Positions 961 to 4,385 of a stretch of DNA of 64,000 nt are shown in pieces (the stretch's first letter is position 1; every line of letters begins with the position of its first letter). The DNA is taken from the NCBI GenBank assembly GCA_900316665.1, contig ONDV01000003.1:1-64000 (forward strand), written 5' to 3'. The notes below the pieces were generated by a model that was not told the origin of the DNA, searched no databases, and saw only the letters and a list, made by a program, of their open reading frames with translations. The DNA is from an uncultured Lachnospiraceae bacterium. Lineage in GTDB: Bacteria; Bacillota; Clostridia; Lachnospirales; Lachnospiraceae. Made by a program: the position numbers and the translations under genes.

Positions 961-1308
961 TCATATTTCTAATGGATTTATTATTTTTCCATCATTCCAG
1001 ATACGCTCAAGTCCGTAGAATTGTCTCTCCTCCTTAGACATGATATGTACTACTATATCTCCGTAATCCATTAAAATCCATGCAGATTTCTGTGTACCTT
1101 CAATGCTTTTCTCATGGATACCTGCTTTAAACATAACCTCTTCTACAGTATCGCGCATAGCTTTCAGATGATTCGGACTTAAACCTGTAGCTATTACAAA
1201 ATAATCGGCAACCGGCGAGATTTCTCTGATGTCGATTACTTCAGTATCTTCAGCTTTCCTGTCTTCCAGGCTATTTACTAAAGCTTTTAAAATATTGTTT
1301 TCTTCCAT
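961..1308 (-). CDS. rsfS: Ribosome silencing factor RsfS
   Basis: RsfS (YbeB/Iojap family) binds ribosomal protein L14 and blocks joining of the subunits, which spares energy in stationary phase or starvation. The 115-aa protein carries the family core: the DYFVIATG segment, the SWILMDYGDIVVH-type strand (here SAWILMDYGDIVVH) and the ERQFYGLERIW end. In many Firmicutes it directly follows nadD-yqeK in one operon. Here about 1.8 kb of IscB element and palindromic repeats separates it from yqeK, so it may depend on its own promoter or on read-through. A run of eight T lies downstream, but no convincing hairpin precedes it. Confidence 0.95.
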   Translation of the reverse strand: MEENNILKALVNSLEDRKAEDTEVIDIREISPVADYFVIATGLSPNHLKAMRDTVEEVMFKAGIHEKSIEGTQKSAWILMDYGDIVVHIMSKEERQFYGLERIWNDGKIINPLEI

Positions 1309-1449
1309 CCTCTTTTCTCCATATATTTGAAACTTTATTTATCAGATGTCTGAACCGGATCTTTTATACATCATCTGCTGTTTTTATAGTCTCAAAGCTA
1401 AATATCGTTTTTTCGCTGGCAATAATATTGTTTGACTATCAACCTGTAA

Positions 1450-1474
1450 TGTAACATCACGAAGTGATGTTACA
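1450..1474. repeat. Perfect palindrome, GAA-loop form
   Basis: An 11-bp stem (TGTAACATCAC and its complement) around a GAA loop. It is a sister of the TTT-loop palindrome at 127-153, and the near-palindrome at the edge of the large repeat (ACAGCAC-GAA-GTGGTGT) is similar. It lies between the IscB element and rsfS. Confidence 0.8.
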
Positions 1475-1476
1475 AG

Positions 1477-1520
1477 TGCAAGCGCAAGCAAACGAAGTTT
1501 GCACTTTAAATGCGCTTGCA
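1477..1520. repeat. Nested double hairpin
   Basis: The outer arms TGCAAGCGCA (1477-1486) and TGCGCTTGCA (1511-1520) are perfectly complementary. Inside them GCAAAC-GAA-GTTTGC (1488-1502) forms a second hairpin. A competing pairing, AAGTGCAA with TTTGCACTT, overlaps both. It directly abuts the palindrome at 1450-1474. Together they make a structured spacer next to the right end of the IscB element. Confidence 0.7.
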
Positions 1521-1558
1521 TCAATTTAATATCATTTTAACAAGCCGTGAGCAAGAAA

Positions 1559-1592
1559 TCCCCCACCTCTAAGTGAAACGTAGGTGGCGGGA
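1559..1592 (-). repeat. Element right-end hairpin
   Basis: An imperfect 10-bp stem (TCCCCCACCT with AGGTGGCGGGA, single-base bulge) with a 13-base loop, 12 bases past the iscB stop codon. Its position and G/C-rich stem resemble the subterminal hairpin that Y1 transposases recognise in IS200/IS605 ends. It could also act as a transcript end, although no T-run follows. Confidence 0.55.
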
Positions 1593-1603
1593 TGAATTGC
1601 GAT

Positions 1604-2887
1604 TTACACGGCGTTTCTAATGTATTGCCAATTATTATTGTGTGACAACAATCTCAAGTTGGATATACCTACTTGCTTATACGATTTACCCGGCAAAGTG
1701 ATATATTCATCATTTTTATTTTTGATGTATGCACCGCCAGAAGTAAAACCTGTAATGTAACCAACCTGATCTAATACAGAAACCTTATCGTTAAGCCAAA
1801 ATCCTTTGTAGTATGGCGTATTTTTTCTATTACGCTTTTGCGTACGATTAGGCTCTTTACGTCCTTTGCGAGCAGTTGATTCATGTAATGAACGCTTTTT
1901 CTTACGAAACTGTCTTATTAGTAACCACTCATTAGGGTTTTCTTTTATAGCCGTTATACTGCTTATAGCAATCGCGTCATTGTAATGAGTTTTCTCTAAG
2001 CCAATCTCTTTTCGCTTTGGTGTTGTCTCTGAACCATAAGTGATGATTGCATTAGGATATTTGTCGAAAATCCTTCTACGAAGCGTATTCATAAATGGTG
2101 GCTCTTTATACTGCTTTACTTTTTTATGTTTTGCCTGCCACTCGTATAGGATTCCGCCCTTTTTATGGTTTGCAGATGTATGACAGTCCGTACATACCGT
2201 AATGAGGTTATCCACTCTGTCTGTACCGCCATTGCTGCTATAGATAATGTGGTGTGTCTGCAAAATTTTGCCTTTCGATTTACCGCATACTTGGCAAGTA
2301 TAATTATCTCTTGCAAAAACAAAATATCTTTCATCAAAGAAACCGTATGTCTGACCATGCTGATAATCTACACCGTGAATATCAGGATTTATCATCTTTG
2401 CTGTATCAAATTTACCAACCTCTATATGTAATATAGGTTTTGGTACTAATGCAGAAAATCTGTCTATCCACGCAAATGTATGATCTATCCTGTTTTGTAA
2501 ACTAGGTGATAGCCATTTATCTGTACGTTTGCGATTAAGAAAACGTGGCTTACGATACCTGCATTTACGTTTTCTACGACCTCTACGATAAATACGCTTA
2601 GTATCAAGATTAGAGCTGACGTCCTGCCTTAATTCTACTTCTGCCTTGTAGAACACCTTGTCCTCTGACGTAACAGCGATACCAATATGTTTGGCTCCCG
2701 TATCTACGCCAATATGACAATCCTGTTTTGTTTCTCCAGTTGCGTAAATCAACTGAATAGTAAAAGGATTGTATTTGTTAATTACCGCCTTACCTTCTTT
2801 TAGAAGGATTCTCGCTTTTCTTTGACTGCAAGGCATAAGCGGTTCGCCTCGCATATTGAGTACAAAAACTCTGTTTCCTTGTTTCAT
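1604..2887 (-). CDS. iscB: RNA-guided DNA endonuclease IscB
   Basis: IscB is the transposon-encoded ancestor of Cas9. It uses an omega-RNA to find DNA beside a short TAM and cuts both strands with RuvC and HNH domains. All modules are visible (numbering from ATG 2887, 427 aa): the PLMP domain (GEPLMPC, about 14-20), RuvC-I Asp62 (IGVDTG), an Arg-rich bridge helix (about 97-116), RuvC-II Glu156 (HIEVGKFD), an HNH with zinc cysteines 198/201/232/235 and His212-His213, RuvC-III His301 and Asp304 (THYNDAIAI), and a basic C-terminal TAM/RNA-contact region. It has no REC lobe, which excludes Cas9. ATG 2887 follows AAAGG. The frame is open further upstream to a TTG at 2914, but the family usually starts just before the VFVL-PLMP segment. 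No active-site residue is missing, so the nuclease is probably functional. Confidence 0.93.
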   Translation of the reverse strand: MKQGNRVFVLNMRGEPLMPCSQRKARILLKEGKAVINKYNPFTIQLIYATGETKQDCHIGVDTGAKHIGIAVTSEDKVFYKAEVELRQDVSSNLDTKRIYRRGRRKRKCRYRKPRFLNRKRTDKWLSPSLQNRIDHTFAWIDRFSALVPKPILHIEVGKFDTAKMINPDIHGVDYQHGQTYGFFDERYFVFARDNYTCQVCGKSKGKILQTHHIIYSSNGGTDRVDNLITVCTDCHTSANHKKGGILYEWQAKHKKVKQYKEPPFMNTLRRRIFDKYPNAIITYGSETTPKRKEIGLEKTHYNDAIAISSITAIKENPNEWLLIRQFRKKKRSLHESTARKGRKEPNRTQKRNRKNTPYYKGFWLNDKVSVLDQVGYITGFTSGGAYIKNKNDEYITLPGKSYKQVGISNLRLLSHNNNWQYIRNAV

Positions 2888-3165
2888 TAATTTACCTTTG
2901 ATACCTACTCGCAAGAGGTATCCCTTTCGTGTGAAAGTTTGTTTCCCTTCGCCAATGTTATTAATGCTTGTCGTAATCGACCACTTGAGGTTGACTGTTC
3001 CTACCCATCAGAACTGTTTACAGAGCCTCCACAGTTGCTACAGACTTGGGAATCATCCATAGGTGTGCTAACATAAATAACGTAGTTTTCTAAAAACTTA
3101 GGCTAGTCAATTAGAGCTTTTACAAACTCCGACCTCTAAGGCGTTAGCCGTAGGTCAGGGTAGTT
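2888..3165 (-). ncRNA. Probable omega-RNA of the IscB element
   Basis: IscB guide RNAs are known to come from the region directly 5' of the ORF, with the guide at their 5' end. This roughly 280-base region has no convincing gene and several clear hairpins. These include GACCT/AGGTC around GGC-TAAC-GCC (3131-3156), an AGTTTT/AAAACT hairpin, AACTGT/ACAGTT, CTTTC-ACAC-GAAAG, and GATACCT/AGGTATC just before the start codon. The first hairpin contains the stop codon of nadD-yqeK. If the scaffold starts near 3165, the guide would be transcribed from the last yqeK codons (about 3166-3185). The exact 5' and 3' ends are unknown. Confidence 0.6.
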
Positions 3166-4385
3166 GACAGTTTTCTCATCGCAGAGTCATTAATATTTTT
3201 GTAAAATTCATATGTTTTTTCTGTAGTATCATCAATCTCAGCACCTTTATTCTGGAGATAAAGCAACGTATCTCTTAATATCATGCAGATAGCCAGATCA
3301 ATGTTCATGAAACTCTGCTTTCTGATCTCCGGAAGATTAACGGCTTTTGTCCTTCCGGGTTCAATATAATCTGCTGTAAATATGATTTTATCCAATAGAT
3401 TCATATTCGGGCAGCCTGTAGTATGCACTGAAATAGCATGACAGATCTCAGGGTCATCTATTTTATAAAGAGATCCCGCAAGATAAGCTCCTACTTTTGC
3501 ATGAAGGAGATGAGGACTTTCTCGTTCCTGCTCTTTGATCTCAATTCCATTTGCGTGCGAAAAAGATAAAAGCTGTTCTGCTGACATATATTTGGCACAG
3601 TCATGGAGAAGTCCCGCATACATTGCCTTATCGACAGGACAGCTGTATCTCATCGCGAGAGCTGATGCCGTATACATTACTCCAAGTGTATGCTCATATC
3701 TCTGCGGCTTTAATTTTTTCTTCAGGTCTTCTTCTATCTCTTCTATCGTCATGATATAATCTGCTCTTTTCTCATAGAGATGGTGTTCTTTAATATATCT
3801 GTATGCATATTCAGCTATGTATTCCGAAGCTTTGGGATTGTCTTCTGCCAGATAATCTCGTAAAACTGTAGAAGAAATATCAACAGGCTTCATTCCAAGC
3901 GGCTGAAAACGTGTATTATATTTCTGAGATTGGAAAAGACATTTCTTTCGAAAAGATTCTCTGTCAGAATCAGATCTTATGCAAACCGCAAATGAACATA
4001 ATTCAGCTATCACATCAGGATTTTTCCATCGATCAAAACTGTCAAGAGAATCCTCGCCGATCAGAAAGACAAAATGGTATGAAGGATACTTTTCTGACAG
4101 AAATCTCAACGTTTCATAAGTATAGCTCTTCTCAGGTCTTCTACATTCCAAATCAAGGATCCTTACATAAGGAAGGTCAAAAACAGAACGTCTTATTATC
4201 TGTATTCTGTCATCTGATGGAATTTCATCGTACATCTTCTTATGAGGCGGAATACCTGCCGGAATTATCCATATTTCATCAGGATTCAGCTCGTTGAAAC
4301 ATGATAGGATCATCTGCCTGTGACCGGTATGGAAAGGATGAAAGGTACCGCCATAAAGAACTATTGTCTTTTCTACGTGTCGCAT
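3144..4385 (-). CDS. nadD: Fused NadD / YqeK (nicotinate-nucleotide adenylyltransferase + HD hydrolase)
   Basis: Residues 1-205 are NadD, which makes deamido-NAD+ from NaMN and ATP; GGTFHPFHTGH (12-22) and ISSTVLRDYL (about 170-179) are the nucleotidyltransferase motifs. Residues 210-400 are YqeK, an HD-domain symmetrical Ap4A hydrolase, with His232 and the His261-Asp262 pair. The two are separate genes in Bacillus; fusions occur in Clostridia. ATG 4385 has a GGAG 7 bases upstream. The last residues (about LTYG) and the stop codon lie in DNA that looks like part of the IscB omega-RNA hairpin, so the native C-terminus has probably been replaced by an insertion. The HD core is intact. Confidence 0.93.
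   Translation of the reverse strand: MRHVEKTIVLYGGTFHPFHTGHRQMILSCFNELNPDEIWIIPAGIPPHKKMYDEIPSDDRIQIIRRSVFDLPYVRILDLECRRPEKSYTYETLRFLSEKYPSYHFVFLIGEDSLDSFDRWKNPDVIAELCSFAVCIRSDSDRESFRKKCLFQSQKYNTRFQPLGMKPVDISSTVLRDYLAEDNPKASEYIAEYAYRYIKEHHLYEKRADYIMTIEEIEEDLKKKLKPQRYEHTLGVMYTASALAMRYSCPVDKAMYAGLLHDCAKYMSAEQLLSFSHANGIEIKEQERESPHLLHAKVGAYLAGSLYKIDDPEICHAISVHTTGCPNMNLLDKIIFTADYIEPGRTKAVNLPEIRKQSFMNIDLAICMILRDTLLYLQNKGAEIDDTTEKTYEFYKNINDSAMRKLSTTLTYG

What the first reader, a model, noticed from the sequence alone, without database searches (positions are those of the whole stretch)
1530..3165. Complete IscB element with intact RuvC and HNH catalytic residues in a housekeeping operon
The ORF has every module of an IscB nuclease: PLMP, RuvC-I Asp62, bridge helix, RuvC-II Glu156, HNH His212/His213 with four zinc cysteines, and RuvC-III His301/Asp304. 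It has no stop or frameshift. No Y1 transposase is nearby, so it is either mobilised in trans or kept as a stand-alone RNA-guided nuclease. It sits between yqeK and rsfS, which are adjacent in many Firmicutes. Visible: motifs and hairpins. Known: IscB family biology. Inferred: function and mobility here.
Basis: partly seen in the sequence, partly recalled or inferred. Interest (0 to 1): 0.85.

Follow-up and report, generated by a model that had tools for sequence, protein, structure and literature searches.

The report
Ordinary mobile IscB element in yqeK
This is a complete, intact copy of a known kind of small jumping DNA that carries an RNA-guided DNA cutter (IscB, a relative of the ancestor of Cas9); it landed exactly on the stop codon of a housekeeping gene in a Lachnospiraceae-like bacterium, and it is well preserved but of a familiar type.

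Summary
Window 1541-3168 is a 1628-bp IscB element: an intact 427-aa IscB ORF (1604-2887, minus strand; NF040563, 361 bits) with all catalytic and zinc residues, preceded by a HEARO/omega-RNA (2937-3168 minus; RF02033, 125 bits). Copies at unrelated loci stop aligning at the same bases, and all keep TTTAA at one end (TTAAA on the IscB strand). In relatives yqeK and rsfS are adjacent, so this is an insertion; removing 1541-3168 restores a yqeK stop codon (...MRKL*) where relatives end. The own genome has no Y1 transposase, no TnpB, one IscB, and no second site matching guide plus TAM. Congeners hold the element at other loci with 95% DNA identity, although lexA is only about 69% identical, so it spreads horizontally; close copies lie on contigs classed as viral. 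A tnpA-tnpB IS605 element in a congener has a terminus 83% identical over 81 bp, with the same TTTAA target. Best reading: a non-autonomous IS200/IS605-type IscB element, mobilised in trans and kept by IscB cutting the empty site. New member of a known kind. Cutting, transcription and transposition were not testable here.

The parts
1541..3168 (-). whole IscB element, 1628 bp (IscB strand shown)
   Evidence: sharp loss of alignment at the same bases in independent copies L086, L087, L088, L095; L089 shares one end, L091 the other
1536..1540 (+). TTTAA: inferred TnpA target site; TTAAA on the IscB strand, inferred TAM
   Evidence: present beside the element in every copy with that end; joins the flanks into a restored yqeK stop
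1550..1600 (.). terminal hairpin, shared with the tnpA-proximal end of an IS605 element in congener G004
   Evidence: folding; 83% identity over 81 bp to G004:C28:891-962
1604..2887 (-). iscB, 427 aa (alternative TTG start at 2914)
   Evidence: NF040563 360.8 bits; PLMP, RuvC, bridge and HNH motifs; dN/dS 0.04-0.11
2937..3168 (-). HEARO / omega-RNA scaffold
   Evidence: Rfam RF02033, 125 bits, positions 1-211 of 211; compensatory changes among relatives
3169..3184 (-). inferred 16-nt guide: last bases of the original yqeK
   Evidence: position directly 5' of the scaffold, as in described IscBs (PMC9640706); no other guide-plus-TAM site in the own genome
3144..4385 (-). nadD-yqeK fusion ORF; its last seven codons (STTLTYG) come from the element
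   Evidence: TIGR00482 and TIGR00488; restored end ...MRKL*
961..1308 (-). rsfS, next gene of the operon
   Evidence: TIGR00090; adjacent to yqeK in relatives

Best explanation
An intact, non-autonomous IS200/IS605-type element whose only protein is the RNA-guided nuclease IscB. A Y1 TnpA supplied in trans by a related IS605 element is thought to have inserted it as a single strand 3' to TTTAA, at the stop codon of yqeK. Transcripts reading from yqeK into the element would give an omega-RNA whose 5' ~16 nt are the last bases of yqeK. IscB with this RNA would recognise the element-free allele (yqeK end + TTAAA) left by excision, or present on an unoccupied chromosome, and cut it, so that repair from an occupied copy restores or spreads the element. 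The occupied allele is spared because GTCAA follows the guide where TTAAA is needed. Shown: gene, RNA, exact ends, target, empty-site logic, horizontal spread, matching terminus on a tnpA element. Inferred: transcription, TAM use, cutting, trans mobilisation, retention.
For: IscB family match and residues; HEARO RNA; identical ends with unrelated flanks; yqeK-rsfS adjacency in relatives and restored stop codon; 95% DNA identity to elements of congeners at other loci against about 69% for lexA; viral-contig copies; TTTAA and terminus shared with a tnpA-tnpB element, a weaker match beside another tnpA, and the other end shared with TnpB elements; purifying selection; no further guide-plus-TAM site in the genome; TTAAA fits the NTAAA TAM of OrufIscB (PMC13180657).
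Against: The own genome lacks any detected TnpA, so the copy may be stranded now. No same-species empty allele was available. The G004 element is cut by a contig end, so its far terminus is not seen. Some related copies are broken (L088, L089), though sequencing or assembly errors are possible. Activity untested.
Confidence: 0.85

Rival explanations
1. A domesticated, immobile IscB kept by the host as a stand-alone RNA-guided nuclease, for defence or regulation.
For: No TnpA in the genome; intact ORF under purifying selection.
Against: Same element with intact ends at unrelated loci in congeners and on viral contigs; patchy, 4 of 98 relatives over the cut-off; not conserved at yqeK-rsfS; the guide comes from the host's own gene end.
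Confidence: 0.05
2. A once-mobile element now stranded and decaying: the transposase partner has been lost and IscB no longer matters.
For: No TnpA or TnpB found in the own genome; broken relatives exist (L088, L089).
Against: ORF, RNA and both ends are intact; dN/dS 0.04-0.11 against close copies, although this reflects past selection; a transposase could arrive with another element.
Confidence: 0.1
3. A false call: a chance or chimeric ORF, or an assembly artefact at the junction.
For: None found; the genome is a draft of 97 contigs.
Against: Intact 427-aa ORF, full HEARO RNA, and the same element with the same ends in independent assemblies.
Confidence: 0.01

Closest known systems
IscB / HEARO OMEGA systems (OgeuIscB, OrufIscB)
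   Same: PLMP, RuvC-I/II/III, Arg-rich bridge, HNH; HEARO RNA 5' of the gene; guide from flanking DNA; TTAAA fits the NTAAA TAM of OrufIscB (PMC13180657)
   Different: 427 aa against about 495 for OgeuIscB; guide and TAM inferred from sequence only; sits on a yqeK stop codon
IscB of Ligilactobacillus salivarius plasmids, annotated 'RNA-guided endonuclease IscB'
   Same: 57% protein identity over 97% of the length
   Different: plasmid-borne in another order of Firmicutes
IS200/IS605 elements with TnpA and TnpB (ISDra2, IS608; here the G004:C28 element)
   Same: terminal hairpins, insertion 3' to a short fixed target, nuclease motif equal to the transposase target; the G004 element shares terminus and TTTAA
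   Different: carries IscB instead of TnpB and has no tnpA; the guide is at the opposite end, so the TAM is the reverse complement of the target

Membership tests
IscB (OMEGA) nuclease | IscB family profile match over the curated cut-off | tested here: met
   NF040563 360.8 bits, cut-off 175
IscB (OMEGA) nuclease | PLMP motif, RuvC-I/II/III, Arg-rich bridge, HNH with intact catalytic residues | tested here: met
   invariant in close intact copies
IscB (OMEGA) nuclease | HEARO/omega-RNA directly 5' of the gene | tested here: met
   RF02033 at 2937-3168 minus, full length, 125 bits
IscB (OMEGA) nuclease | guide taken from DNA flanking the element, with a TAM on the other flank | tested here: inconclusive
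   position and TTAAA agree in all copies, but no RNA or cleavage data
IscB (OMEGA) nuclease | RNA-guided double-strand DNA cleavage | not testable with these tools
   needs biochemistry
IS200/IS605-type element | fixed short target at one end, precise ends, terminal hairpins, no target duplication | tested here: met
   TTTAA beside all copies, identical ends
IS200/IS605-type element | element absent at the orthologous locus of relatives | tested here: met
   yqeK and rsfS adjacent in congeners and other family members; no same-species genome available
IS200/IS605-type element | own Y1 TnpA transposase | tested here: not met
   none in the element or genome; autonomous membership not claimed, only a non-autonomous derivative
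IS200/IS605-type element | mobilised by a TnpA acting on its ends | not testable with these tools
   matching terminus on a tnpA-tnpB element in a congener is indirect support

The most novel reading that the evidence does not exclude
One TnpA family serves both kinds of RNA-guided nuclease element in this genus: it moves TnpB elements (TAM TTTAA) and IscB elements (TAM TTAAA, the same site read on the other strand), so two different nucleases share ends, target and mobiliser, with phages carrying the IscB form between hosts.
Probability: 0.45. Interest if true: 0.4.

Novelty: new member of a known kind. Interest (0 to 1): 0.25.

Why it matters
It is a clean natural example: exact ends, target, predicted guide and TAM can all be read from sequence, and the insertion sits on the stop codon of a conserved gene, so the empty-site-cutting model can be tested directly. 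The terminus shared with a tnpA-tnpB element gives a concrete candidate for trans mobilisation, which for IscB elements without a transposase is usually only assumed.

Tried and rejected
Exact searches of viral contigs for the empty sites of the two phage copies: none. AlphaFold2 on five close sequences: mean pLDDT 38, so no fold search was run. Pfam on the joined-flank proteins of L086 and L095: only sub-threshold matches (Bro-N E 0.042 for L086), so the open frame across the junction is the evidence and not the family. Most Y1 loci fetched from congeners do not share the IscB terminus; G004:C28 (L097) does, and G031 (L073, same family) has a weaker match. RNAalifold on a MAFFT alignment recovers only part of the HEARO fold; the Rfam model is the better test. 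Domestication was considered and set aside on the mobility evidence.

Full report
Observation. The ORF at 1604-2887 on the minus strand encodes 427 aa without a stop or frameshift. NCBIfam calls it guided_IscB, 360.8 bits against a cut-off of 175; Pfam finds RRXRR and HNH; the alignment to an IscB of solved structure puts D62, E156, H213, H301 and D304 on the matching acidic and histidine residues. For OgeuIscB the catalytic set is D61, E193, H340, D343 and H247 (PMC9640706). At the gathering threshold Rfam finds one RNA in the whole window: HEARO at 2937-3168, full length, 125 bits.

Boundaries. Close elements were found in genome and viral collections. Aligned to the window, L086, L087, L088 and L095 stop at window 3168 (L087 3169) on one side and 1535-1536 on the other, with unrelated flanks beyond; L089 shares the 3168 end and L091 the other. 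On the IscB strand the element begins GTCAAC and the far side always shows TTAAA. On the plus strand this is TTTAA followed by the element, the IS200/IS605 pattern of insertion 3' to a fixed target without duplication (described for ISDra2 in PMC8612924). The element proper is therefore 1541-3168, 1628 bp.

Empty site. In the congeners and in the other family members where both genes were found, yqeK is followed closely by rsfS, within about 150 bp in those inspected, often with lexA next. In the window more than 1.8 kb separates them. Joining the flanks across 1541-3168 gives ...GATGAGAAAACT-TTAAA..., so yqeK ends ...NINDSAMRKL followed by TAA; congener G005 ends ...KNITEERL followed by TGA at the same place. 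The insertion therefore sits on the stop codon and appends seven residues (STTLTYG) to YqeK. In two other copies (L086, L095) the joined flanks also give one open frame. These are species-level comparisons; no same-species empty allele was available.

Mobility. The element is 95% identical in DNA in congeners G006 and G005 at other loci, while lexA of the same genomes is about 69-70% identical, so it moves between species. Mis-binning of the short contigs of those draft genomes is a caveat. L087 (a bacterial assembly) and L095 (a contig classed as viral) carry elements 96% identical to each other; genes around the viral copies match phage families. Only 4 of 98 relatives hold an IscB over the cut-off, a patchy spread. 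IscB is under purifying selection, dN/dS 0.04-0.11.

Mobiliser. The own genome, 97% complete, has no detected Y1 transposase and no TnpB. In congener G004 a tnpA-tnpB element (tnpA at C28:427-786, tnpB running off the contig) has an upstream end 83% identical over 81 bp to the IscB element's TTTAA end, with the same TTTAA. A weaker match lies upstream of a tnpA in G031. The other end of the IscB element matches, at 82% over 56 bp, the end of TnpB-type elements in G001, G004 and G005; the tnpB was read in the G004 copy. That G004:C23 element has a different end on its other side, so no single element sharing both ends was seen. Mobilisation in trans by such a TnpA is the best-supported inference but is not shown.

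Guide. In IscB the 5' ~16 nt of the omega-RNA are the guide (PMC9640706). Here they are the last bases of yqeK. A search of the own genome for guide plus TTAAA with up to three mismatches finds only the occupied junction, where GTCAA replaces TTAAA. This fits cutting of the empty allele only. TTAAA agrees with the NTAAA TAM measured for OrufIscB (PMC13180657).

Verdict. Known kind, new member. [quoted passage not shown] IscB proteins 57% identical are annotated as such on public plasmids. The most useful part is the terminus and target shared between the IscB element and tnpA/tnpB elements. From memory, and not checked here, mobilisation of IscB and TnpB elements by one TnpA has been reported in Geobacillus.

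Noticed in passing
window 1447-1530: Palindromic repeat of 79-84 bp (fold z-score -7.4), about 35 near-full copies in the own genome, several in tandem with a 79-80 bp period and many at contig ends, none in eight congeners. REP/BIME-like, but no Y1/RAYT gene was found in the genome. It lies beside the IscB element's target.
   Followed up: partly
L110:1487-1690 (G003:C257): HEARO RNA without an IscB, just upstream of a phage portal gene: an orphan omega-RNA in a probable prophage.
   Followed up: partly
L111:1488-1710 (G028:C19): Another HEARO RNA with no IscB downstream.
   Followed up: no
L122, L125-L138 (G005 and G019): Many short copies of a TTTAAC-CAGTCGGAGAAATCCCCCACCTC palindromic unit, which look like coding-free elements using the same kind of target.
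   Followed up: no
L088:260-1390: A second, distant IscB (38% identity) lies next to the close one on the same contig.
   Followed up: no
L155:3365-3402 (own genome G000:C41:5364-5401): A lone hairpin like the GTCAAC end of the IscB element, a possible relic of an IS605-type element in the own genome.
   Followed up: no
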